Source: Blastomyces gilchristii SLH14081
Taxonomy: Eukaryota; Ascomycota; Eurotiomycetes; Onygenales; Ajellomycetaceae
Assembly: GCF_000003855.2 (NCBI RefSeq)
Contig: NW_003101677.1
Span: 1,120,392 to 1,184,391 of the forward strand
Length of the DNA stretch: 64,000 nucleotides
Direction: 5' to 3'
Positions 1 through 42,990 of the stretch are shown in pieces. The first letter of the stretch is position 1, and each line of letters begins with the position of its first letter. The translations under genes were made by a program, and so were the position numbers. The notes under the pieces are model-generated. The model did no database searches and had not been told where the DNA came from. It saw nothing but the letters and a program-made list of their open reading frames with translations.

Positions 1-1045
1 GATTCCGTGCCCCCATGCGGGTGAGGGTGAGGGTGGGAGGAGGAGGAGGAAGCCTGTTGGCTATAGAGGCTTGGAGGCGGAGAGTGGGCCGACGAGGCCA
101 TGTGGGAGTTCCCGTACGGACGATGTAGGGGGAACTGAGGGGTCGCGGATGTAGAGTGGGCGTGATATGACGGGGAGGTGTCGGGATGGGACACAGACCC
201 GTTTAAGGGCGGGAGAGTGGTATTCATCCTTGGAGAAGGGGGGTGGGCAAAGTGCGGGCTCCGGGCCATGGAGGATGGGGGGTACGCGGGGGGTGTATGA
301 GGAGGGGGTTGGTAGGGGTCATTGTTGGGATAGGAGGACCTGTCTCTCGAAGAAGAGGGAGAGTAGTTTGCGTAGCGAGATTGCTGGGTAGGAGAGTGAA
401 CTGTGTAGGGCGGCCCTCCTGCCATCACGAGCAAGCTTCTTTTTTGTGGCGGAAGCACGCGTTATATAAGAGCGAGCGGGAGGTATGGATCAGATGCGGG
501 TTGAGAGATGGGATGGAACGGCAGTGAGGTAATTATTTTTCTATTGACGAAGAAAATGGGTGGGGGATTTGGGATTAAGGAATAGATGAGATAGCCATGG
601 AGTTTAGGCGTAGGACGGAGAAGGAATGAATAGCTTGACCCAAGAATCCGTGCAAGATGGGGGGCTGTTGGTAAGGACTTGTTAGCCAAAGCCAAACTAG
701 AGGGAGGGAAAAAAAAAACCTTTTTTCTTTTCTTTTTCTTTTTTTCTTTTTTCTTTTTTTTTTTGTATCGCGGGTTGGTATTGGTTAAATTGAAGGCAGA
801 GAGAGAATTTGGGGATGGGGAAAATGGTGGAAGGGAAGAAGAGTAGGATGGAAGAGACAATTCTTTCTACCTGAAGCTGGCGAAAGAAGCGAGTTCTTCT
901 TGTTCTGGCCGTTCAAAAGGACGAGACCAAGGGACGAGAGTTAGTGGATTCGCATGGAGCAGCAGCAAGGTTACAGACAGAGGCGATGATTGGTGGCAAG
1001 GAAGTGGTATACGGTAGACGGTGTGGAGGTTGGAGGTGGAGGAGG

Positions 1046-1076
<31 letters not shown>

Positions 1077-1585
1077 TGGGGATGATGATGATGGATGGGG
1101 ATGGCGAGAGTGAAGAGGATGGAGGATGATGTTGGTGATGTTGGTGATGTTGGTGGTGGTGGTGGTGGTGGATGGCGAGGGCAGCGCCTTCATTATTGTG
1201 GTTTGTTTGGTGGTTGCTGGTAGTTACTGCTGGTGGTGTAGGTGCTGGTGCTGGTGCTGGTGCTGGCGGGCGGCGGGCGGCGGGTGGAAGCAAATCAATC
1301 CCCTGATGCTGCACCCACCGACTTTCTTGCGGCGGGCGGCGGCGGGTGGAAAAAGACCACCAAAAAGACCACCAAAAAGACCAAAAAGAGACCAAAAAGT
1401 CTGTTCTGGGCGATGTGTCAGGCTCCGGCTGTTTGCGGGCTCGCCGGTATTGGCCCGTACGGACAGCCGCCGATACAGGGCCTGGAACTGGCGCCGGCGC
1501 CCGCGGCTACGAAGGTTGGTTACAGGTATGGTATCCGGCTTACCCGTACAGCCCCGTACAAGGCACAATACAACTTCTCCAAAAT
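1..1585. repeat. GC-rich low-complexity region with simple repeats, no supported gene
   Basis: This stretch is rich in G and in short tandem repeats. It has a GAT/GGAT microsatellite at about 1045-1100, GTTGGTGAT units near 1130-1150, GGT runs near 1152-1170, CTGGTG units at about 1240-1265, and about four nine-base units of the type accaaaaag at 1357-1400. Open frames here are translations of these repeats (His-rich on the minus strand, Gly/Val/Met-rich on the plus strand) and carry no recognisable domain. It may be the upstream region of a gene outside the window. Confidence 0.6.
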
Positions 1586-1624
1586 AGGTACCTTTTGTAT
1601 GATTATCCCATATAAAAGGTACCT
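1586..1624. repeat. Near-perfect inverted repeat (hairpin)
   Basis: Two 15-base arms at 1586-1600 and 1610-1624 pair at 14 of 15 positions around a 9-base loop, and each contains GGTACC. The hairpin sits exactly where GC-rich repeats give way to an AT-rich, CpG-poor tract. It could mark the edge of an inserted element, but no target-site duplication was recognised. Confidence 0.6.
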
Positions 1625-2120
1625 GTCAATGCAAATTTTATGAGCAGAACAATAGTAGTAGTAGAGTAGCCTATCAAAGAATTTAAAATCCTAAACCCTT
1701 TTACTAGTAGATTTAAGTTAGTTACTAAGTTACTTAAAATAGTTATGAAATAATAATTTGTTTCTACTACACAACTAAACTTAAAATTTCATCATTACTG
1801 CGTAATGTCCTGTGTTGAAGATATATATATATTTTTTTAATAGGTATCTTTATATGGTGAGCTCATAAATAGTTATAAGTTAAACACTCTCTCACAGTCA
1901 GTAGGATCTAACAAGTTTTGTTGTGATGATGACTCTAGTCTGAATTTAACAACATCATGCTTGCTCTAAGTTAGCCATAATAACTTTGTTCACAGCTTCA
2001 CTTTCATCCTTCATTCTTTAACAACAACACTTCAGAGGAATGGTATTTCTACTTCTGTTTGGGTTTTTTGAGTTTCTCATCTATGACATTCCTCTGAACC
2101 AACTTCAGTACTTACTCCTG
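1625..2120. other. AT-rich, CpG-depleted tract without genes
   Basis: I count only one CpG between about 1640 and 2120, far below expectation for this base composition, and no open frame is supported. In fungi this pattern suggests old repeat DNA in which methylated CpG has decayed. No transposon protein could be recognised. Confidence 0.5.
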
Positions 2121-30087: not shown

Positions 30088-31746
30088 TTATGCTTCTGCT
30101 TCTCCGCGTCGTAGTGCAAGAAGGGCACGGACATCTGTTACGTATTGCAGCGCCTCCAAGATTGGGATGAGATGTAAGAGGTCGTTGTCTGTAGGGTCGT
30201 TGATCCAGCCTTCGATGGGAATGGCGTTATCTGTATGAACCAAGTGGTTCTTTAGCAAATGTGCAATTTACATAGGAGACGGAGCATTCAATCTCTTTGG
30301 GGGCGATTGGAATGATTTTCGTTGACACATACCTTCATGAAAAATATAGCTCATAGGACTATTATCCAAAATCATTACCTTGCTCAAGTCCGGCTCTACA
30401 GAGCTAAGGTCCTTGATATATGCACCATTCCGAAATGTGCAATGTTGCCGATAATATCTACGATGAAAGTACTTTCGCTCCTGCTCGAGCCAGTCGATGA
30501 CTGGGTCTGCATATTCCTGAACACTAGCAGTAAAAACCACCAGTTTATACCATTTGCATACTTTCCGGAGAAAGTCGTCGCAATGCGGGCGTTTATGGAC
30601 GTAGTAAAGGATAGGGTGCTGAGGTCCGATCGTGGTTGTCGGCCCTCCAGGAGTTGAAGTCGTCACTGGAGCTGACAACTTTACTTCTACCATGTGGCCG
30701 CTGGACATTCGGCCACCCTTCGCCAAAGAGTGGATAAGGGTTTCGTCAAGGTCGAGCACCAGGGTTTTTTGGGCCGATGGTCCATACCTGGGGTTTGAAG
30801 GTGAGGTGTATGATGGTTGCCGTGGTGGTATGAGCGGTCGTGGTGGAGACGGGGCATGAGGGTATTTTGTGAGCTTATGAGAAGATGGAGACATTGGCGA
30901 TTTCAAGCTTTCAGCCGCACGAGTTTCGGAATCTTGCCTCGATCCGTCGGATTTCGCTTTCTGCTGCTTTCGTTTCAAATTCCCTTCCGTGTTTAATTTT
31001 ATACGTATTGATCGTCTGGGGGTTCCTTCGTCGGTTGATGACGAACCGCGAGTTGATTTCGTTCTTCGGCCCCCGCCATTGGTGTGCCTCAATCCAGACC
31101 GGTCAGGCTCCGACTCTGAGGTATTGAGAGATATTGACTCTCGGGATGTAGAGCTTCTTAGCCGCCGTACATTACTCCCACCCCGGCCGGAAGTTTTCTC
31201 CGTGGCAGGATAAACATTGCGTCCTGACGCAGGGACGCCAATGCCGTGTGATGCCGTCGTGCCTCTGTTAGGGCCTCCGATGAGCTGCCCTAGCCGCCTT
31301 ACTGGCGTTAAAATAGAGTAACGTCCGTCATCGCCCCGAAAAGCACCCGCAACGTATATACCTGGAGAGGCAAGCGCAGACAATATAACTTTTAATGTTT
31401 CGGCAATGGCATCGAAGAGGCGTTGAGCAATCAATTGTAGTTTACTAGTTGATGGGAGAATGCCGCTTGTTTGTAATCCCTGTAGGAGAGGAGATTTCTC
31501 ATCCACCGTGTCTGGTAGATCTAGGGAATCTTCGTTTTCCTGGACGTCATGGTGACTCTCTCCTAGGAGCTGGGCGTCAACTGACTCCGCAAGGTGCAGC
31601 TTTCCCTCGCTGTACGATCTGCCCGCAGCTAGGTCACTTCGGTGGCTTTCGGAGGACACAGGGCCTTGTGAACGGGAGCGGGGACGGGTATTGGACGTGG
31701 TAGGCTGTCTGATGACTCGAGATGAGAGGATATTGAGCGAGTTCAT
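30088..31746 (-). CDS. NEM1: Nuclear envelope morphology protein 1 (Nem1), lipin phosphatase catalytic subunit
   Basis: Catalytic subunit of the Nem1-Spo7 phosphatase at the nuclear/ER membrane, which dephosphorylates and activates lipin (Pah1) and so balances phospholipid and triacylglycerol synthesis. Two exons (31746-30333, 30230-30088) give 518 aa. The long N-terminal half is basic and Ser-rich with a moderately hydrophobic segment (IAETLKVILSALASPGIYVAG). The C-terminal FCP1/SCP-type HAD domain starts with LVLDLDETLIHS (the DxDxT nucleophile motif) and continues with HKRPHCDDFLRKV, FTASVQEYADPVIDWL and VMILDNSPMSYIFHE, then across the splice DNAIPIEGWINDPTDNDLL. An upstream in-frame TTG is not the start; MNSLNILSSRVIRQ is the first in-frame ATG and looks typical. 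Identity is firm. Confidence 0.95.
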
Positions 31747-32943
31747 GGTTCGTTGCAGGCCATGCAACCGTATCTGGACGCAGTTGTCTACTCATAACTA
31801 GATCAGCAACTAGTACCACGAGGGTTCAGGACAAGGAGCATAGCGTAGGCACAATAAAAATGATCATGAATTGAAAACAGACCAGGGGTTTCAGCTTACC
31901 TCAATGCGCCAGATGCTGCTGACAGCCCCAGCCACTGCCAACTGGCTGCCGGGTGCTGCTGGGCGAGTACAGCAGCCGGGGTGCACCTAGCGGCAGTGCG
32001 GTGTTTTAACTGTACGGGATGCTAATGTCCAAGCAGAAGGAGGAACAAGAGACGGAGTGTCACTGGCAAGAGAATGGAGAGAGACGAGGACAGGAAGCCA
32101 AGCTGAAGTCAGCGCTGTCGTTGCCGTTGTCGTGTTGTTGTGGTAAATAGTCGCAGTTGCTGGTAGTTTGTTGATGTTGGAGGAGGAGAATGAGCGAAGT
32201 GGTTGAAGGTTGAAGGTTGGTGGTGGTGGTGGGGAAGCAGAGCCGCCGCAACGACGGTCTCATTTGTTGGGCCGAACAACGCACGCCAACAAACAGCCGT
32301 TAAGACACAACCCGCTCCAGCTGCATCCCAACCATAACAATGCTCGGGTTTAGGAGCCAAAACGGAGCAGAGATATCTCCTTATTCTACAGGCAGCAATG
32401 CATGGATTTCCGTCTGGTATTGAATCCCTTTCATGCAGGTCCACGCCTCTCAACAGAACTCCCAACCGACGCTCCTCCTCTCCTCCTCTCCTGTTAACTA
32501 GTTACTGTAGCCAATACCCCTAGGCATATCAACCAACACTTAAATAAAAGCGCCTTATTCAGCTCGATAGCAATCATGTGGTCTCCTGAGTTGTAGGCTA
32601 CTGGGGCAAAAGAGCCCAGTCACCACCAGCGCACTGCTGGTAGAAGGGCCGATCAACCCGGGACCCCCAACAAGAGTCTCATGTGCAATTCCCTTCACAA
32701 TCACCACACCGAGAAGGTCCGGTTGTTATCTTACCGCTCGTCCCCTTCTACTCACGGAACAACTACGGAGGACACCCTGCCAATAGAGTAGCAGCCTTGA
32801 ACAAGTCTCAAACTACCAATGATACTCCTGGAGCACTTGTTGCCCGGTTTGTACCCAAGGAGCCTTATATTCATGTGATATATGCTGGCCTACTTTTTAT
32901 CTAACTACCATTCACCAGGACTTTTGGGTTTTGATAGCGTTCT
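31747..32943. other. Intergenic region: NEM1 promoter side and 3' flank of the MFS gene
   Basis: About 1.2 kb between two genes on the minus strand. CT/CA-rich simple stretches occur near 32100-32240 and 32475-32500. The frames seen there (such as 32109-32465 on the minus strand) are simple-sequence artefacts. Confidence 0.5.
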
Positions 32944-34727
32944 CTATCGAGATATTGAATGCTCATGCTTTTTCTCGAAACCTTTTCTCCAGGAGGGTCC
33001 TTTTGCCAGGCTTAAAAGCGCAATTCCTGTACTTGACAGGTCAACAATTGCAAGTCCGGTAAAGCACCAACCAAAACCCTCTACGCCGATGAGCGGATCA
33101 ATCACAGCTGCTCCGATTGCAGCGGCTGGATTGCGCAGGAGTGAAGTCAATGCGACCAGAGTAGCTGCCTGTCCAGGCTGGACGAGCGTTACATATGTCG
33201 TGTTGGTCGAAAGCGTCCATGAGAATGCAAACCCGCCTAGATCATATTAGCTAACGCAGGTGTCTTCTGAAGGGATAATATAAACGGACGAACAGATAGC
33301 CATTGAGACGATTACTCCTGGAACACCTATACCGGAATTTCCCAGCCATCCATATAATAGAACTCCGATCGGAAATAGGGCCGTGCCTATAAATTGAAGG
33401 TGGAGCCTTCGTTCGGGTGCTACGTCTTCGTCCTTTGTATTCTTAAGATACCTCCGGTGGGCCCAGTCGCTTAAGTGTCCGCAAATAACTGATCCGCATG
33501 TCATACTGAGCCCTATTGAGAAGAGGACATGTCAGTGAGATCTACCCAAGCTCTTGGTCAATCCAATATACCTGGTGCGAGATAAGCCGCTCCAATTTCT
33601 GCAGAGTTGAATCCATATCGTTCCTGGAGGACAGTGGGGAAGGTCACTGAAAGACAATAGTAGCTCCCAAAAAGGATGGAGACATTAATGCATGAGAGCA
33701 TTATGATAGGATGTTTCATGAATATGAGTATGTTGCGTCTACTTGGTCGCCGTGGGACCGTCTCTCCAGGCCTGAGCTCGACCCTCTTGCTGAACGATGG
33801 CCACTGAATCCAAGCCTTTCCATCGTAGATGGCACCGTTTCCAACCCTTGACCTAAGAGTCTCCGGAAGTAAGAATAGGGAAACTAGGAGGCAAAAGCTG
33901 CCAAAAATAGCTGACCGAATAGATAAACTGTCAACGCTCTAGGAACACTTGGCCTGCGGTAAAGGAATTAAATTCCTTCATACTCACCTAAAAACCCGAA
34001 GGTCCATCGCCAAGTTGATCTCTGTGCAATCGCACCCCCTATTACCGGACCAAGAATTGGTCCTAACTGCGGTCCAAGACTGTAATATGAGATGGCTCGA
34101 CCACGCTGCTTCGGTTCGAAAATATCTGCGACTGTACCGGCTCCAAGGCTGTAAAGCGCAGAACCACCGAACGCCTGCGCAACCCGCAATGTCATGAAGG
34201 AGGCATAATGCGCAGGTGCGGATGCTAGGGCAATGTTTGCGCCAATGCCGATTAATAGGCCAAGCACATACACTGGCTTTCGCCCTCTTGCGTCTGAGAG
34301 GGTCGCGAAAAATAAGGGCTACAGCCTAACAATTAGACATAGCCAGTATGCAAGTTGCCTTGGAATTTTTTTCTCTATCTCTAAAGCTAGGGAGAGAGGG
34401 ATAATCTGATGAATAGCAAACTGGCGAACAGGGGAGAGTACAAACCGCCACTGCGAACGTGAGCATAAACACCGTAACCGTTAGGTTTATCGACGTTGCA
34501 GACACGTTCAAATCCTCTGCCAGGACAGGAAGCAAAGGCATATAGATACTCGCAGAAACTGGAGCAATGAAGGCCTTTGCGACAACTATTGATAGAATGA
34601 ACTTTTTTCTGGTGGGGGAAAACGTTGAATACGGCGGTTGAGTTTCTGGTTGACTGTCTACCATCCCCTCTTTCGTCGTAGAGATGTCCCCTTCTTCATT
34701 GACGTCTGCTGGAAGGGAAATCGCCAT
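32944..34727 (-). CDS. MFS drug:H+ antiporter (DHA1), candidate exporter of the adjacent isocyanide/dityrosine-type cluster
   Basis: Twelve-span proton antiporter of the major facilitator superfamily, likely in the plasma membrane. Five exons (34727-34446, 34318-33988, 33910-33572, 33512-33294, 33236-32944) give 487 aa with consistent phases. After a charged N-terminus of about 40 residues come the first span, LFFATLSDARGRKPV (motif A, loop 2-3), FEPKQRGRA, and SLGPQLGPILGPVIGG, the motif C glycines of DHA1 antiporters. The last intron (33293-33237, 57 nt) is the least certain; it removes an in-frame stop and restores a transmembrane stretch before NTTYVTLVQPGQAATLV. In yeast the DHA1 protein Dtr1 exports bisformyl-dityrosine made by Dit1 and Dit2. 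The DIT2- and DIT1-like genes next to this one suggest a similar job here, but that is inference. Confidence 0.85.
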
Positions 34728-35754
34728 ATCCAATGGAGGTGCAATGGGATTTTACAGATGGTTGGAAGGAGAGGTTTTGCCTTGTATGGTTGATTCTAAA
34801 GAATTGAAAGGGAAGAAACAGGGTAGGATGGGGACGGAACGAAAGAGCAAGGGAATGGAAGAACGCAAACTACACGGTGGAGGCACAACAATGAATATGT
34901 GGTTAGACCAACTACCAGCCAATTAACAGAGTCAAAATCTCTTGCGGACTCTAACATTGCATTGTCAAAGAAAGGCACCCAAACTCAAGCTGCAGGGAGA
35001 ACATGGATCCAAAGCCCAAAACTTGAAAATGGAACCGTTGCATCCTGTACGACAAAGTCACCATGTCAAGAATATTCTTTTAAGGGCGTCACTATGCTCC
35101 TGTTTGACAAAGGGGCGTGATGGGAATCGCATGCAGGTAGGACGAGGGGCGTTTATGGAACATATGCACACACCCGTGGTTGTTGATCTCCAATGGGCCG
35201 CTCCTCTGCGCCATATATTTCTCGCTCTTCTTCAGAGGAAGCATATTTTTCGCTCTGGTCCTTAGTAATTTCTATTTTATTTTATGTCCTACCCATGCCT
35301 ATGATCGGGCATATCTCCTGGGTGAAGCTCAGCTGGTGTTTGCCTACAAGTCAGAGTGGGGGACATATGCTAAGGTGTGTGAACCCGATAAGCAGTCAGT
35401 GAGTCTCGATATCTGAAAGGCCTCTTGATTTTGTGTGAATCAGCACTTGTGAGATGCGAGGAGCAGAGGAAACCGAAACAAGTGGCATGTAAGTGAGACT
35501 TCTAATGCTGACAGTGAAGCTCCGTCGAATATTCCCGAAGTATACAGACATTTCATTCTTGGTTGCGGACAAACCATTACACATGACAAGTTTGTGTAAG
35601 ACGAGAGACTCTCCGACATGTCTCCATTGCGCCGTGCCCTCCAACGCCCATCCCCGCCACCGCCCCGTTTATTTGCTTATATCCCAATTGCCCAGCCCAC
35701 CCGTGCCGAAATAAAGCGCGGAACGGTTATAGTTACTGCCTGGGAACAAGGAGT
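34728..35754. other. Intergenic region between the MFS gene start and the P450 stop
   Basis: About 1.0 kb, presumably the MFS promoter plus the 3' flank of the P450. No gene, repeat or site could be supported. Confidence 0.5.
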
Positions 35755-37535
35755 TCAGTTCCTTTTGGCTTCTATACCCGGCCGATTTTTGAATATATAC
35801 TTGCAGCCAATTGGCTTCAACAAACCCTGTGGCGAAATAATGGTCAGTTGCATCCGATATGGTAAAGCTGCTCGGCCATGCTAAAATTTACCAAAATAAA
35901 AATAAAAAATAAAAATAAAAATAAAATAAAAGACTTACTCGTGCAAGCTTCATTTTAGACCTAGGATCCAATATCCACTCCACGCTTTTCACCAACTCGA
36001 ACAACATAATCTTCATCTGCAATAAGGCAAACCCCTGGCCAAGGCATTTCCGCGCATGTGCGTTAAACGGAATGTATGCACCCCGGGCATTTTCCCTACG
36101 GAACTTGGCCCGTATTGTGTCAACCGTGGTTCCCCATCTCTCGGGGACAAACTGTTTTGCATCGTCGCCCCACACTGCTTTGCTGGTGTGCACACCAAGT
36201 GCAGTCCAACCAAGGAGTGTGTTTGGTGATATGACGATGTCGTCGCCTATAACTGCTGTTTGACATGCTTTCCGGTTGATGAGCTGTTGAAGTGGGGGGT
36301 AAAGGCGCAGAAGTTCGAATACTATCGCAGCGAGGTATGGCAAGCTGTCAACTATTTCCGGTGTTGGGTCGACGGCCCCTGTATTCAAGACTTCTAATCG
36401 AAGCTTTTCTTGTACGGCCTACAATGGTTTCCTTGTCAGCTTTTCATTTCCAGCCTAGGAGGTGATTAAGGGGCGTGACTATTTGGGGAACCAACCGTTT
36501 TGGTGCCCATTTCATACAAGGCTGAGTCGAGCAGATGCTGCACGTCTTCGTGACCTGCCACGAACACTATTTTCATATTTGCACGGAACTGGGTCTCCGT
36601 GATTTTCCCGCAGACGAGGGCTTCTCGGAGGTCGTCTATAACCTGTCGTTCGCCTGAAGCACTTGAGTCCCGCGAAACGGTCCGTGGTCGAGGGTTCCGA
36701 ACAACTTCGTAAAGTAGGTCCTCGTACTCTTTCACGATTCGGAACGCGCGCTTTCGACTCCGAAATATATAGGGATATTTGTCGAGGATGGGAAAACTGA
36801 AATACAGCGGAGAAAAAACGTTGGCCCTAATGGCTGTCTGGTACTTTGCCAGCCTCACCGCTTCATTCGATTCAAGGCTCTGTCATCTTTTGTTAGAATA
36901 TTTGGGAATCCAAGCCTTTCCGATGCCACGAATTCCAAAATTGGACGTACTTCAAAATCCGTTTGAAAGAAATGTTCTCCCACAACAAAAATCGTATACA
37001 TTTGCACTAATGACTCTATCTCGATGCCCGAACTTTTGCCCGCAGCCTTCTGAGCCTCCAGGAGTCCTCTGATCAACTGCCTTGACCTCCCCAGCAACTT
37101 ACTGGTGTCTGTGATCCGCCTTTGAATACCAGCCTTCATGATCGAGGTGTAAAGCTTCCATGTCTCCCCCTGGGCGCTAATGATGTTGTTGCCGAGGAAA
37201 GTACCAAGAACGCTGAAGGGAATCCTGTTATTATTTCCTGCCTTCGGAAAGACCTGATCTTTCCTGAGGAGGTCGTTGATATACTCTGGCTTTCCAAGAA
37301 GCACAGTCCATTGCGACGAGACCCAGAACTTGACTGCTCCATATTTTTCTAGTGGTTCGCGCAACCAGCGGTCATATATCTGATCTTGACCGAGGTCAAT
37401 GAAATATGCAATGCTGGATACGTAGAATGGAACTGTGGGGATATTTTTGGGCATGTGGGATGGCATGCGAAGATACCACCATAGAGAGATGGTCACTAGG
37501 GCCACTGTCGCGCCTATGCCCGCCAGTAAAGCCAT
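35755..37535 (-). CDS. dit2: DIT2-like cytochrome P450 (CYP56-type)
   Basis: Membrane-anchored haem-thiolate enzyme. In yeast, Dit2 couples two formyl-tyrosines to dityrosine for the spore wall. Four exons (37535-36951, 36879-36496, 36418-35939, 35880-35755) give 524 aa, every phase zero. An N-terminal anchor (ALLAGIGATVALVTISLWWYL) precedes the Dit2-type signature MPKNIPTVPFYVS and the blocks GAVKFWVSSQWTVLL, NNIISAQGETWKLY and IMKAGIQRRI. The I-helix region has VFVAGHEDVQHLL. ExxR is in FELLRLYPPLQQ (~358-361), and the haem loop FNAHARKCLGQGFA places Cys near 448. The last splice (an AAATAA-rich intron) adds a C-terminus containing TIISPQGLLKPIG. The third exon uses a GTTGGT donor, which is unusual. 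It lies between the MFS exporter and the isocyanide synthase. The product may be dityrosine-like or another oxidised isocyanide; the sequence cannot say which. Confidence 0.9.
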
Positions 37536-40500
37536 GTCGCGAGAAAGTTGTCAGTTTCAACTTTTTGTTGATGAATGCGCAGTGTTCTGATCTAGAAGGA
37601 GGGAAGTAAAACAAAATCAATCCTTTTCATCTATCGCAGCAGTGGCGTAAGAGCACTGGAATGGGCTAATATAAAAATACCCAGGCAGGAATGGCCGCGG
37701 AGGTGAGTCTAGAGGCTTCATTCTTGGTGGATTATCACGGGAAGTCCATCATTAGCTACAGGACGTCGGATATTCTTGCTTCAAGTTGAGAATGGGCGGT
37801 TAATGGAAGTGCGTTTGCGTCACATCATGAATTTTCTTAAACCACTCGGTTGTGGTCCTCTAGGATACTCATGTGGAAGGCAGGAATTATGAACCCAGAC
37901 TTCCCGCTCTACCGAATGTGCAGGGAAAAGCATGCCGGCAACAATGCAGCCTCAAAGATCACATTTGTGTAACGCGATAAAAAAAGGAAGCTGAGTGGGC
38001 GAATATATCACATATATAATTGCTAAAAGGTAGGAATCCACCCCAAAATACGATCTCCCAGGCGCCTTGGCATACCTTTATTTTTTTCTATTATGGGATA
38101 GTTAAAATCTTACGCTACACGGGCATAACTACTCTACTTCTATTACCTCTTTTAGGCTCGCTATGGAATAAACAATTGTCCCTCAAATTTCCCAGTCTAG
38201 GGAAGGCCGCCCCCCCATCTCCTGCATGATCACATATATACTTACGGTGCAACATTATCAGAATAGCCAACCATTGTCTTATTGCCCTGGCCTCATGGTG
38301 CAATGTAACGGTAGGCCCCGGGGGCGCAGGGGCCAGCACTTTCAGGATGGGAGCCAGCCGGTTTGTGGTCTCTTTGGCCTACTGGTTAGAGCAAGGAGCC
38401 TGGCAGGCTCTGGCCAAGATATGCAATCAACCATCTATCCCCCAATGAGGAGAAGAATGAATAATAAATGATACCAACTAATGTGCTAGTAATGCGGTTA
38501 TCATCGGGCTCGTGTTGCTCTTGTTGGGAAGCCATGAGGCGCTGATTCTTACAATGTTATATATTACACTTATTGCCAGAACATTTTGCGAATTGGAGTA
38601 AGAGAACAGGATCGGCCACATCGATCGAGTCTGGAAAGAGCTTTGGACCACAGAATCCTGCTTTTACACCTTATAAACAGGTTTGATGGTCTTGCACCTC
38701 AATTAATCAAAATGATGTCAAAAGATTTGCCAATGTCACGAATTATTTCTGATTCATGGACCTAATATTTGTTTCTTGCGTGTCCCATCAATGGCACATG
38801 TGCGTTTTTAATTTTTTAATTTTTAACTGTTCATTTGTTTACTTATTTTCTCTTCGGCGTGCAACCCTAAATTTCTGGTTCCCTCTACCTTCTTATAAAT
38901 AACCGTGGTGGCCTGATATCATTTCCGTTTGGCGTTGAATCGGATATTGAAGATTGTGCATCATCCTTCACGTGCTGCGTGCGCGAAAATGATTGGAGTA
39001 AAAAGTTCCAGGATGTGTAATAGGTCATCGGCACTCATATCACTTTTGAGACATACAAATTATGTCAATTTTTCTTCCTTCCAGAAACGGTGTAGAATCC
39101 CGGAGTGAGGATCAGCTTCGAAGTATGAAAAATAGGATCCCCCAATGCCAAGACGCTCCTCGTAGATCCGCGCTAAATCCAAATAGGAATCCGTTCATTC
39201 CGTTCCATGGTTCAGGTAGGGCCTAGTTTTGAGCTTGTTTGCACCTCAGTTGTCAAAAGACCAAATGAGATTCTGGCTTCACGACGCATGTTGGCTAGAA
39301 AGATATAATGTTCCACTAAATATTACTAGTTGCGGAGAAAAACATGGTAATATATTTTTTGGCACTGCGTCATTTGCATATGCAAACTTCAGCACCCCCC
39401 CCTTTTTTTTTTAACTGGCACGAACAAACCTGGGTGCAAAACACGCTTGAACAAAAGGGGTAATTTTCAGCGTCAGCTACTGACTGGCTTCACTCCCCAT
39501 TCAATCGGGCGTCACCAACTCAAAAAAAGGTTGCCTTGGCGCAAGGGTTCTGGTGATTCAATTATATATATTGCGGAACGAGCGGTGTGAAGGTGAAGCC
39601 GTTGCGGATGAATAAACTGTGGAAACATCTTAACCACTTGACCAAACATCTTCTCCGGATCTCTCAGACCAAAATTTTTATGCACTAGTGCTGGGGACTC
39701 AAAATCCATGCCCTATCCTCGCCAGGGGAAGGTTAGGATGCTGAATCAGCTATTACTGGTGATCTTATGTTCTAATTCCAACCAAAACGATATTTCTCCC
39801 TTCTAAGCTGGAGACGAAACTGCGGAGGCTAGAAGGTAACAATTCCAACAGGTGTGGCAATACCCCTGATACTAGGATATGGACTCTGTGCGCAAGAAAA
39901 AGGATGCGAGCTGTAGAAATCAGAGCCAATGAAAATAATCCGTATGGCACGTAATTCCCAAAAATTTGCGGAAGCACTTATTTCTACAGAAAAGGAACAA
40001 TGCACAACTCATGTGAGCTGGGAAGGAGCTTACTTACCTAACGGGTTGCTGGATTTTATGTAACAATTCTGCCGCAATGATATATGTGATATATATTGAA
40101 TTGTTTGTTTTCCCTGTCGTGCAAGCCTTTCGTGAAGCCTGAAGGCCGGTATCGTCGGCGTTTGACTCGTATTTGAGCTGGAATTATATGAGGACAGCAC
40201 ATGGCAGGCTTTTGTCTCGGACGGGGGATGTGGATGCCTTCATAGAGAATCTTTTCAGTGAGATCGATGTCGGGGTTGCGAGATCTCAATGATTAGAAAT
40301 GCATGCCAAAAACAGTCTCAGCATAGTATTTTAAGGCCAGGGCTCATTTCGTCCTTTGGTCGATGGAGCCAGATGGCGAAAGTTCAAGGCTCAAAAAGTC
40401 AGTAGCTTCCTCCAGAGACATAGTCAAGCTTGCTGTAAGGGAGTCCATCTTCCCGAAATATGGGGGATTTCATCTCTTCAAATGTAGTGGTCAAGAGGAG

Positions 40501-41047
40501 CTCTGGGGCGTACAGCAAATTTTGCTATCACAACAGTAGACCAATCAAGTGAGAACTTCTTGGTAGCCTAAGGGACAGGAGTTCATCACACTTCATCCTT
40601 CCCGATGTAGCAATAGCAGCCTCAAATGTAAGTAGGTCAGCCTTGCCGTCCGTCATGTAAGAAAATACGGTGCTGACAGTCCACAACGCTGAGCGCTTCC
40701 GTGACTTCCAGGTAAAATAGACCAGTTGAGGCGAGCTATGCAACCTTTCGCCATAATTTGCTACCAAAGTTGCACATGCTAGCATGGCAGTCACAGAAGC
40801 TGGGCTCCTCATTCAGCGAGTCATGCGGCTGTAGACCGACTTATCTGTTGACAGCAGTTAGCTGAGAGCCCGTCCCGTAGCCCATCCATATCAACATGGA
40901 AAAGATTATTCGGCATCCAAGTATATATTGATAGGTGGTGTGAACAGAACCTGATCCTTTAAACAATCTTCAATTTGACACCATCAAATAAATTACCTAT
41001 CCACAAGCCAGTTGATTTATAAACTGAATGGCCTCTTCTTTGTCAAA
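37536..41047. other. 3.5-kb intergenic region between the divergent DIT2-like and DIT1-like genes
   Basis: This holds both promoters of a divergent pair. It includes AT-rich stretches near 38700-38900 and no recognised gene. Minus-strand frames at 39512-39709, 39765-39977, 40056-40289 and 40528-40812 look somewhat protein-like but show no known motif; they could be remains of one decayed gene. A tRNA-like string near 38368-38420 lacks a T-arm. Confidence 0.4.
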
Positions 41048-42990
41048 ATGTCTAGCGATGATATCAGCAATAATACGTGCAATACTCGAACCTGCCTGGC
41101 GGCGGAAACGGATCTGGTCGCTATGATCAGAAAGACTTGTACCTTCGACCATTATGAACTATCAAACGCTTGTAGGGGGAATTTATTGCATGTTTTGGAC
41201 ATGCCCTCTACTCAGCAAGCAGTGAAGGAAGGAAACCATAGTATTATGGTCTACCTTGAGAATGGGACAGATATCGTGTTTGAGAATCGACGTCGGCCTG
41301 AAGACATCCCAGCAATTCGTACGGACGGGAAGACACAGGAACCGTGCCCTTTTGGCCCAAAGACATCCGAGGATGTCAGCAATGCCATCGTTTCTATCCT
41401 CGAAACATATCGAATGGCCCCAAAAGAACACGCTCATGAACCATGGGAAGCCAAAACGAAAATCTCAAGTCTCGTTCGGGAATACATAGAGCTAGGAGAG
41501 GTCATACCGATGGTCCTTCCAGCTTTTCCATTCAAGTCACCTAATAAAAAATTTAAGGTCCTCGGCCACCTTCCAGATAAAGGCGAGGAGGTTGCGTTGG
41601 CACACCTAAACGAACTCTGCAAGCTGATCGAGAACGAGTATACGAAAGGCGGGAGGATAGATATTGTTTCTGATGGATTGATGTACAATGGTAGGTAGCC
41701 TAAGCCTACCACAGTATCATGAAAACGCCGCTAACATTAGTACTAGACCTCCTGGGGATTTCCGATAAAGAGGTGTGGGCCTATGGCCAAGCCCTCCGAA
41801 AACTTGCTGTTGACACAGGATGCAGTAATATAAACTTTGTTCGGCTTGTGCATCTGCTTGGGGAGGTCGAGATGGGAGAGCCATTATCAGAAGAAGAGTA
41901 CTTGAAAGATGCTTCGTGGTTTCGGACGCAGCTTCACGAAAGAAATATTCCCGAAAATTTTGATGTCTCTGCGTTTATATCAAGTGATCCTGACACAACA
42001 CTGACCTACCGAGGGTACATAAAATTCCTCGAAAAAGATCTCGACCACGATAACAGTATTGATGATGCGTCTGTCTCAAAACGACAGATTAAAAAGCGCC
42101 ACGAAGCAACGGCTAAAAACATGATAACCCGTGGACGAGCATTCGCAATCGCTATAGCGAGAAGGTTTGATAAATCGATTAGATTATCGATTCACCCATC
42201 CACAGAGTCAACGAAAGTATCCATAGCAATAACCCCACAAAAGGACGGAATGATCATGACGCCATGGCATTCATCTCTTGTCTATGCAGTGGACGGATCC
42301 ATCCGTATGGCACACGCAGGATCAGTACCGGCATTAACACACGAACTAATTTTCGAGCACGGTCGCCCTGTCTATTTCAGGGAGAAATCACCCCTTTACG
42401 ACTGGGGTAGTGTTGACGTCGAATTTCGATACACCTATCCCTCAGGTATCATTATTTCTCCTCGAAACAAGTCCTGCAAATGCCGACTTAACCGAGTTGA
42501 TATGCGGAAGGTGAGAGTGCTGGCGGGGTTCTGTTCCCCTGTGATATTACGGGGCTGGTTGGAAACGGCAAGCCAAGGTTGCTGTTTTGAAACCGACGTT
42601 GCCAGCGGGAAATGCAGACATGGAAACATTGGAATGGCAAAATTCTGTAACGGAATAACTCCGGGAGTAACAACGGGCTGTCCTAGAATGAGGCCGACAC
42701 CAAGTCATTGTGAAGCCGGGGCCTTGAGAGACTTCGATAGCGAGGGGAGTACCATATGCGACCACGTGCCTTGCCAGCAGATTGTATCTTCAATGCATAA
42801 AACGGGCACATCATCTCAGAGCTTGCTCCATATCCCTCCTGATGGATGTGGTCGGTGCCTCGCAGTAGACCAACATCGAGGAAACCCCCAAGCCGAAAAT
42901 CGGCCGCTGAACGAAGTGCCAAATCCACCAAAAAGTTATTCAGCTTGGAAAGTCCTAAAGGATTGGTCTGACATGTGTATCATGAGCTAA
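41048..42990 (+). CDS. dit1: DIT1/PvcA-family isocyanide synthase with an eroded C-terminal dioxygenase-like part
   Basis: Isocyanide synthases convert the amino group of Tyr, Trp or Val to an isonitrile; yeast Dit1 belongs to this family and acts on tyrosine. Two exons (41048-41690, 41747-42990; 56-nt intron with GCTAAC branch site) give 628 aa. Family blocks in order: VIPMVLPAFPFKSPN and LGHLPDKGEEVALAHL (~residues 155-185), RIDIVSDGLMYNDLLGISD spanning the splice, FVRLVHLLGE, ITRGRAFAIAIARRF, IRLSIHPSTESTKVSIA, and TPWHSSLVYAVDGS. From ~440 the text YPSGIIISP...RVLAGFCSPVILRGW looks like the start of the TauD/TfdA-type oxygenase often fused to fungal isocyanide synthases. The last ~145 residues are Cys/Gly/Pro-rich and unlike that domain; a weak relic (TPSHCEAGAL) and a shifted-frame NEA suggest frameshift decay. 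The synthase core itself is intact. It is divergent from the DIT2-like P450. The substrate is unknown. Confidence 0.88.

What the first reader, a model, noticed from the sequence alone, without database searches (positions are those of the whole stretch)
32944..42990. A compact isocyanide-synthase cluster: MFS exporter, DIT2-like P450 and DIT1/PvcA-type synthase
Seen: three genes within 10 kb encode a DHA1 transporter, a P450 with the Dit2-type MPKNIPTVPFYVS signature, and a protein with PvcA/DIT1 blocks (LPDKGEEVALAHL, SDGLMYN, IRLSIHPS, TPWHSS). Known: yeast Dit1, Dit2 and the DHA1 transporter Dtr1 make and export the dityrosine precursor, and fungal isocyanide synthases make isonitriles often tied to copper. 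Inference: this locus makes and exports a tyrosine-derived dityrosine-like or isonitrile compound. The gene order (P450 and synthase divergent, separated by 3.5 kb) and the lack of other tailoring enzymes make its product an open question.
Basis: partly seen in the sequence, partly recalled or inferred. Interest (0 to 1): 0.8.

Follow-up and report, generated by a model that had tools for sequence, protein, structure and literature searches.

The report
Isocyanide synthase with lipid-anchor-like tail
Three neighbouring genes in a Blastomyces fungus form a small isocyanide-type cluster whose synthase comes from a two-domain family like that of the xanthocillin pathway, has lost its second enzyme domain, and ends instead in a short motif that normally attaches proteins to membranes, so its product and its place in the cell are open but testable.

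Summary
The three genes are real: DHA1 MFS transporter (32944-34727, -), P450 (35755-37535, -) and isocyanide synthase, ICS (41048-42990, +; PF05141 E=2.9e-93). Spliced, the ICS equals the Blastomyces gilchristii SLH14081 protein. It descends from two-domain ICS-TauD proteins (the XanB architecture; 93 of its 120 listed hits) but has lost the TauD dioxygenase: homology stops near 42576. In its place is a disordered, fast-evolving tail ending in a CaaX-like box (CIMS). In a tree of all 120 listed relatives its clade has 14 members (support 100); 10 end with Cys at -4, against 1 of 346 other fetched proteins; 7 fit a canonical CaaX pattern. The P450 lies outside the sampled CYP56/Dit2 clade (100/100) and has the XanG-type heme motif, but the tree cannot decide whether it is nearer to XanG or to the stem of Dit2. 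It is the only PF05141 gene found in this genome. Best reading: a synthase stripped of its desaturase, possibly prenylated, makes a carboxylate-retaining tyrosine isonitrile; the P450 dimerises it to a dityrosine-like product; the MFS exports it. Anatomy is shown; chemistry and prenylation are inferred. The cluster type is known; this is a new variant.

The parts
32944..34727 (-). DHA1-type MFS transporter, 5 exons (34446-34727, 33988-34318, 33572-33910, 33294-33512, 32944-33236), 487 aa
   Evidence: GT..AG introns; PF07690 E=1.7e-56; 88% identical over 100% to an Emmonsia crescens protein of equal length; many relatives annotated 'dityrosine transporter'
35755..37535 (-). Cytochrome P450, XanG-like by identity and heme motif, 4 exons (36951-37535, 36496-36879, 35939-36418, 35755-35826), 506 aa
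   Evidence: 505/506 identical to B. dermatitidis P0121; PF00067; heme motif FNAHARKCLG; outside the sampled CYP56/Dit2 clade at 100/100, sister relation to it neither shown nor rejected
37536..41047 (.). 3.5-kb divergent intergenic region; no gene recognised (a 94-aa frame at 40528-40812, - strand, has no Pfam hit)
41048..42990 (+). Isocyanide synthase gene, exons 41048-41690 and 41747-42990, 628 aa
   Evidence: identical to B. gilchristii SLH14081 protein; PF05141 residues 143-415, E=2.9e-93; AlphaFold2/Foldseek match to PvcA/PIsnA; the only PF05141 gene found in the genome
42535..42576 (+). Breakpoint: the last stretch with homology to the start of the TauD domain of two-domain relatives (CSPVILRGW..)
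   Evidence: tblastn of ICS-TauD proteins and of their TauD parts
42577..42978 (+). TauD-replacing, cysteine-rich, predicted disordered tail
   Evidence: no PF02668 match listed even at max_evalue 10; pLDDT <50 for residues 488-625; tail residues 485-608 32-58% identical to P0003, P0004, P0005 and P0007 while the ICS domain is 82-91%
42976..42990 (+). CaaX-like box CIMS plus stop TAA
43927..45213 (+). Flanking eIF2B-family gene (PF01008), right boundary of the cluster
   Evidence: in Onygenales sp. PD_10 the synthase model is fused to this same neighbour (P0009)
30268..31791 (-). Flanking NIF-type phosphatase gene (PF03031), left boundary

Best explanation
The locus is an Onygenales-specific, reduced isocyanide cluster. 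The synthase descends from a two-domain ICS-TauD enzyme (the XanB architecture), keeps a PvcA-type isonitrile-synthase domain, has lost the Fe/2OG dioxygenase domain and ends in a disordered tail with a CaaX-like box that would be farnesylated (geranylgeranylated where X is Ile), tethering the soluble synthase to the membrane that holds the P450 and the exporter. Inferred chemistry: L-tyrosine + ribulose-5-phosphate -> tyrosine isonitrile with its carboxylate kept (no desaturation or decarboxylation) -> oxidative phenol dimerisation by the XanG/Dit2-like P450 -> bis-isocyano dityrosine, or N,N'-bisformyl dityrosine after hydration by an unlinked hydratase -> export by the MFS. Shown: gene anatomy, ICS-TauD ancestry, loss of TauD, recurrent Cys-x-x-x end. 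Inferred: prenylation, substrate, product, export, and a role (for example in spore or cell wall).
For: ICS-TauD ancestry: 93 of the 120 listed synthase hits carry PF02668; in a tree of all 120 the 14 tail-bearing rows form one clade (100) whose nearest rows P0017, P0032 and P0093 are ICS-TauD (87); a 57-row tree agrees. Two-domain relatives align through the ICS domain, the linker and the first 11-14 TauD residues, then stop. TauD lost: none listed at max_evalue 10 in the six tail-bearing proteins scanned, present in Trapelia P0014 scanned alongside. Tail end: Cys at -4 in 10 of 14 tail-bearing rows versus 1 of 346 others; tails vary from 75 to 154 aa, so the Cys keeps its distance to the stop, not to the domain; a short helix is drawn before it, at pLDDT 29-42. 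Fold like PvcA and tyrosine-bound PIsnA. P450: 40-50% identity to proteins named xanG; heme motif with His at position 4 in 66 of 71 XanG-type rows and 5 of 7 Onygenales rows, versus Gly/Arg in 7 of 7 CYP56-clade rows. The genome has three loci of the prenyltransferase-beta family PF00432 and two unlinked hydratase-like frames at 35% and 30%. In print: Fe/2OG partners of bacterial synthases do the desaturation, with or without decarboxylation (PMC9467999, passages); a Dit1-like fungal ICS was credited with a stable isonitrile whose standard was made from tyrosine methyl ester (PMC13005658, passages); XanG is proposed to dimerise (PMC5974471, passages).
Against: No chemistry, expression or localisation data. 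Four of 14 tail-bearing models do not end in Cys-x-x-x: P0006 and P0010 (Emergomyces) end early, P0008 (H. mississippiense) reads on past the box, P0009 is fused to its neighbour; some may be annotation errors, but that could not be checked. CNVG and CGTS are not canonical boxes; the rows are related, so 10 is not 10 events. The last 20 residues are clearly better kept than the rest of the tail only against Helicocarpus (p=0.0007) and weakly against E. crescens (p=0.035); not significant against B. parvus, Histoplasma or Paracoccidioides. The P450 tree does not support a XanG-plus-Onygenales clade: 9% of 200 bootstrap trees, not rejected either (p-AU 0.4), and the best tree joins Onygenales with CYP56/Dit2 at 76/79. 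Proteins named xanB (P0087, P0108) sit in the other half of the midpoint-rooted ICS tree, so this synthase is not shown to be a XanB orthologue. A separate TauD enzyme could act in trans: PF02668 is at five other loci, though a lichen ICS-TauD query found none even at E 10 (no positive control). The MFS is not tied to xan clusters, and A. fumigatus xan has no predicted transporter (PMC5974471). A survey places Onygenales ICS clusters with an MFS in the dit superfamily (PMC10153163).
Confidence: 0.5

Rival explanations
1. A dit-type cluster: DIT1-DIT2-DTR1 counterparts making N,N'-bisformyl dityrosine for a spore or cell-wall layer, as in yeast and as proposed for Coccidioides.
For: Same kinds and order of genes as the Coccidioides DTR1-DIT2-DIT1 cluster, whose removal thins arthroconidial walls (PMC12077801, one section read); Nickles et al. 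place Onygenales clusters with an MFS in the dit superfamily (PMC10153163, passages); the best P450 tree puts the Onygenales P450s beside the CYP56/Dit2 clade, weakly (76/79); MFS relatives are often annotated as dityrosine transporters.
Against: The P450 is outside the sampled CYP56/Dit2 clade (100/100) and has the XanG heme motif; the synthase derives from ICS-TauD proteins. By the organism names printed (some rows have none), no Coccidioides or Saccharomycotina protein is among the 120 listed synthase hits, and no Coccidioides protein among the 120 listed P450 or MFS hits. No Dit1 sequence could be fetched for a direct test.
Confidence: 0.28
2. Functionally still xanthocillin-type: the TauD step is supplied in trans by a separate dioxygenase and the product is a vinyl isonitrile dimer, possibly copper-linked.
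For: The synthase is of ICS-TauD descent and the P450 is XanG-like; PF02668 proteins exist at five other loci.
Against: The TauD part of a lichen ICS-TauD protein finds no match in the genome even at E 10 (no positive control); XanC, Mac1-like and Wor1-like motifs are not enriched in the window.
Confidence: 0.12
3. A decaying cluster: loss of TauD is the start of degeneration and the tail with its Cys is meaningless.
For: The tail evolves fast (32-34% to Paracoccidioides/Helicocarpus); two Emergomyces models end early and one Histoplasma model reads through.
Against: ICS domain 82-96% identical to the five Onygenales models P0002-P0005 and P0007, open frames, P450 intact, Cys at -4 in 10 of 14 against 1 of 346, genes kept on one contig in several genera.
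Confidence: 0.08

Closest known systems
xan BGC (XanB ICS-TauD + XanG P450), Aspergillus/Penicillium
   Same: ICS domain of ICS-TauD descent and XanG-like P450, clustered
   Different: no TauD domain; no hydratase in the cluster; methyltransferase and xan transcription factor not noticed, but the window was not exhaustively annotated; an MFS gene is present, while A. fumigatus xan has no predicted transporter (PMC5974471)
dit superfamily (Dit1 + Dit2/CYP56, sometimes MFS)
   Same: divergent P450 and PF05141 protein without TauD, DTR1-like MFS; clusters with MFS reported in Onygenales (PMC10153163)
   Different: P450 outside the sampled CYP56/Dit2 clade with another heme motif, though a sister relation is not rejected; synthase of ICS-TauD descent
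Coccidioides DIT1/DIT2/DTR1 six-gene cluster
   Same: the same three kinds of gene in the same order (PMC12077801)
   Different: no Coccidioides protein named among the listed 120 hits for each of the three proteins; Coccidioides has three further genes, here the immediate neighbours are an eIF2B and a NIF-type gene
PvcA / PIsnA, bacterial tyrosine isonitrile synthases
   Same: fold and motifs of the ICS domain
   Different: 26-30% identity in the Foldseek alignments; they work with a separate Fe/2OG partner (PMC9467999); the solved chains end with the domain

Membership tests
DIT1_PvcA / isocyanide synthase | PF05141 over cut-off and PvcA-like fold | tested here: met
   312.8 bits against cut-off 26.4; Foldseek E 8e-20 to PIsnA, 4e-19 to PvcA
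dit cluster (Dit1/Dit2) | P450 inside the CYP56/Dit2 clade | tested here: inconclusive
   outside the 7 sampled dit2/CYP56 rows at 100/100 and with another heme motif, but next to them in the best tree at 76/79
dit cluster (Dit1/Dit2) | synthase belongs to the Dit1 clade | tested here: inconclusive
   no Dit1 sequence among the 120 retrieved; nearest relatives are ICS-TauD proteins
dit cluster (Dit1/Dit2) | divergent ICS and P450 | tested here: met
   37535 (-) and 41048 (+) starts
xan cluster | XanG-type heme motif FNAHxRKCLG and identity to XanG | tested here: met
   FNAHARKCLG; 40-50% to proteins named xanG
xan cluster | P450 in one clade with XanG | tested here: inconclusive
   9% of 200 bootstrap trees; p-AU 0.4
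xan cluster | two-domain ICS-TauD synthase | tested here: not met
xan cluster | isocyanide hydratase (XanA) in the cluster | tested here: not met
   the two hydratase-like frames found are on contigs C2 and C11; the window is on C6
xan cluster | copper-responsive expression / XanC control | not testable with these tools
   only motif scans, no enrichment
CaaX protein | Cys-aliphatic-aliphatic-X at the very C-terminus, kept in orthologues | tested here: met
   my canonical pattern in 7 of 14 tail-bearing models, Cys at -4 in 10 of 14; 4 of 14 lack it
CaaX protein | exposed, flexible C-terminus | tested here: inconclusive
   pLDDT under 50 for residues 488-625; this also fits a shallow 21-row alignment
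CaaX protein | prenylation in vivo | not testable with these tools
   needs experiment
DTR1 dityrosine exporters | orthology to yeast DTR1 | tested here: inconclusive
   39-47% to the yeast relatives listed, but the six yeast rows form their own clade (100*) and the Onygenales rows another

The most novel reading that the evidence does not exclude
An ICS-TauD (xanthocillin-type) pathway was converted into a dityrosine-type wall pathway by losing the dioxygenase domain and gaining a prenyl anchor: a membrane-tethered isocyanide synthase hands a carboxylate-bearing tyrosine isonitrile to a membrane P450 and exporter, giving Blastomyces, Histoplasma, Paracoccidioides and kin a convergent replacement for a missing DIT1.
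Probability: 0.25. Interest if true: 0.8.

Novelty: new variant of a known kind. Interest (0 to 1): 0.5.

Why it matters
It corrects a label that leads to the wrong metabolite prediction: several XanG-like P450s and ICS-TauD synthases in the hit tables carry 'DIT' names (for example P0132, P0174, P0114, P0120). It points to a natural domain-loss experiment on isocyanide chemistry and to a possibly lipid-anchored isocyanide synthase. In the 5.39 million open papers held, 'isocyanide synthase' with 'prenylation' gave 2 papers and with 'Histoplasma' 2; judged by title and start of abstract only, none is on this subject. If the product feeds the wall of dimorphic fungi, it would explain how a fungus with no other PF05141 gene (searched in this one genome) could still make dityrosine-like polymers.

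Tried and rejected
Rejected: (1) that the synthase C-terminus is a broken TauD domain, an early suspicion: relatives keep the same open frame and TauD homology simply stops. (2) A missed intron in the tail: the annotated B. gilchristii protein is identical to my reading. (3) My first P450 3' splice site (524 aa), replaced by the 506-aa model; searches used the 524-aa version. (4) Regulatory motifs: AGTCAGCA (XanC, from PMC8406171, passages), TTTGCTCA (Mac1-like, recalled) and TTAAAGTTT with one mismatch (Wor1/Ryp1-like, recalled) are not above chance in the window. (5) Rfam: no match. (6) MFS lineage: the tree ties the exporter neither to dit nor to xan clusters. (7) NCBIfam: PvcA model hit far below its cut-off, uninformative for P450s.

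Not done: a tree with genuine Dit1 proteins (none could be retrieved; all 3 protein searches used; each lists only the best 120 of 562, 344 and 514 hits); DNA of relatives, so no dN/dS and no check of the four odd gene models. Trees: ICS 57 of 120 and all 120 by FastTree; P450 44 and 32 of 120; MFS 38 of 120 plus the window. The heme-motif count used 7 Onygenales rows, rows P0130-P0200 (71) as the XanG-type set, chosen by rank and not by tree, and 7 CYP56-clade rows. P0012 and P0027 count as 'noTauD' but look like truncated models; one search also listed no TauD in P0012 and P0076.
Full report
What is there. The window is contig C6:1120392-1184391 of a 74.8-Mb, 75-contig genome. Its synthase is identical over its whole length to the Blastomyces gilchristii SLH14081 protein and its P450 model matches a B. 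dermatitidis protein at 505 of 506 residues, so the organism is Blastomyces (Ajellomycetaceae, Onygenales). Three genes are confirmed: an MFS transporter and a P450 on the minus strand and a PF05141 synthase on the plus strand, flanked by a NIF-type phosphatase and an eIF2B-family gene. PF05141 has a single gene (two exon matches) in the genome.

The synthase: ICS-TauD descent and loss of the TauD domain. Of its 120 listed hits 93 carry PF02668 beside PF05141; the best beyond Onygenales are from lichens, 56% over 62-64% of the query. In a FastTree of all 120 the tail-bearing rows P0001-P0011, P0034, P0045 and P0057 form one clade of 14 (100), next to the ICS-TauD proteins P0017, P0032 and P0093 (87). 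A 57-row tree (quick method, midpoint root) gives the same group (13 rows, 100*) in a fork with lichen, Xylariales and other proteins (94); the two rows named xanB lie in the other half, so XanB orthology in the strict sense is not claimed. tblastn of two-domain relatives against the locus aligns the ICS domain, the linker and the first 11-14 residues of the TauD domain, and then stops at 42567-42576. Pfam lists no TauD in six tail-bearing proteins at max_evalue 10 while Trapelia P0014 in the same call has it at 3e-20; Lasallia P0012 and Nannizzia P0076 also show none. The HxD and distal histidine motifs of the relatives are absent from the six tails checked (one HxE in P0001). AlphaFold2 folds the ICS domain and linker but not residues 488-625 (mean pLDDT 59, 21-row alignment), and Foldseek finds PvcA and PIsnA.

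The tail. It is 75-154 residues after the SPVILRG motif, Cys-rich in six models from Blastomyces to Paracoccidioides (6-12 Cys), and fast-evolving: against Histoplasma 58% identity versus 90% for the ICS domain, against Paracoccidioides 32% versus 82%. It ends in CIMS, CIVS, CTVI or CVIA in seven Onygenales models, and in CNVG, CNVG and CGTS in three metagenomic relatives. Cys at -4 occurs in 10 of these 14 rows and in 1 of 346 other proteins fetched here; of the 27 listed synthases without PF02668, only these 10 have it. The rows are related, so this is not 10 independent events. The exceptions are P0006, P0008, P0009 and P0010. In the window the reading is GAC ATG TGT ATC ATG AGC TAA, D-M-C-I-M-S-stop. 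Three prenyltransferase-beta loci are present. That X=Ser favours farnesylation and X=Ile geranylgeranylation is recalled knowledge.

The P450. Its best relatives outside Onygenales are lichen, Leotiomycete and Dothideomycete proteins and proteins named xanG (40-50% identity), while CYP56D2 of Danielia and the DIT2 of Zygosaccharomyces rouxii score 34% and 31%. In a careful tree of 32 rows the seven CYP56/dit2 rows are one side of a branch with 100/100 support and the window's family is outside it. The heme motif is FNAHxRKCLG or a close variant in the XanG-type set (His at position 4 in 66 of 71) and FNAHARKCLG in the window (5 of 7 Onygenales rows have His), against FHGG/FHGR in 7 of 7 CYP56 rows. 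Against a simple XanG label: the best tree joins Onygenales with CYP56/dit2 at 76/79, a XanG-plus-Onygenales clade is in 9% of 200 bootstrap trees and is not rejected (p-AU 0.4). The motif may be ancestral. An earlier quick tree of 44 rows warned of long branches. The MPKNIPTVPFYVS signature is shared by XanG.

Synteny. Read by eye from the hit tables, using equal contig length and organism: P450 and synthase share a contig in E. crescens, H. capsulatum H88, Helicocarpus, Emergomyces pasteurianus and Onygenales sp. PD_10, with adjacent locus tags in the four where tags are printed, and in ten more pairs outside Onygenales. MFS with synthase or P450 on one contig, adjacency not shown: Onygenales PD_10/12, Emmonsiellopsis, Delitschia, Plenodomus, Geoglossum and Zopfia. 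In Emergomyces africanus synthase and MFS are on different contigs, perhaps by fragmentation.

How it would work. Bacterial PvcA/IsnA enzymes make the isonitrile from tyrosine, and Fe/2OG partners then desaturate it with or without decarboxylation (PMC9467999, passages). XanB is proposed to do both in one protein and XanG to dimerise (PMC5974471, passages). Without the second domain the expected intermediate keeps its carboxylate, the same intermediate proposed for Dit1; a Dit1-like fungal enzyme has lately been credited with a stable isonitrile (PMC13005658, passages), against an earlier report that yeast Dit1 is not an isocyanide synthase (PMC7345447, abstract). Dimerised by the P450 it would give a dityrosine-type product. 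This is inference.

Relation to print. Nickles et al. (PMC10153163, passages of the preprint) describe the dit superfamily, single-domain synthases probably arising from ICS-TauD ancestors several times, and Onygenales clusters with an MFS nested near Dothideomycetes. Whether that Onygenales set includes this locus I cannot tell; Blastomyces is not named in the held text. The Coccidioides DIT1/DIT2/DTR1 cluster, whose deletion thins arthroconidial walls (PMC12077801, one section read), is the closest functional precedent, but no Coccidioides protein is named among the listed relatives of any of the three genes. So the cluster type is known; the TauD loss in this family and the CaaX-like end are the new points as far as the searches show, most hits being seen as listings only.

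Noticed in passing
G000 contigs C1, C3, C11, C13, C21: TauD (PF02668) domains occur at five loci without PF05141, although Lim et al. 2018 (passage) state that all fungal PF02668 proteins they saw were fused to an ICS.
   Followed up: partly
P0046, P0076, P0103: A second group without TauD (Xanthoria, Nannizzia gypsea, Pseudogymnoascus) forms its own fork (99*) among ICS-TauD proteins: another possible loss, or truncated models.
   Followed up: no
P0008, Histoplasma mississippiense: The annotated protein continues past WSNMCIM where H88 stops after CIVS: stop lost or annotation error.
   Followed up: no
P0204/P0279 and P0134/P0066, Caeruleum heppii: By equal contig lengths, one fungus seems to carry a CYP56/Dit2-clade P450 with a DTR1-like MFS on one contig and a XanG-like P450 with an ICS-TauD on another.
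   Followed up: no
window 40528-40812 (-): A 94-aa open frame in the 3.5-kb divergent gap, no Pfam hit.
   Followed up: partly
window 1-2000: GC skew 0.37, about twice the next highest 2-kb block of the window.
   Followed up: no
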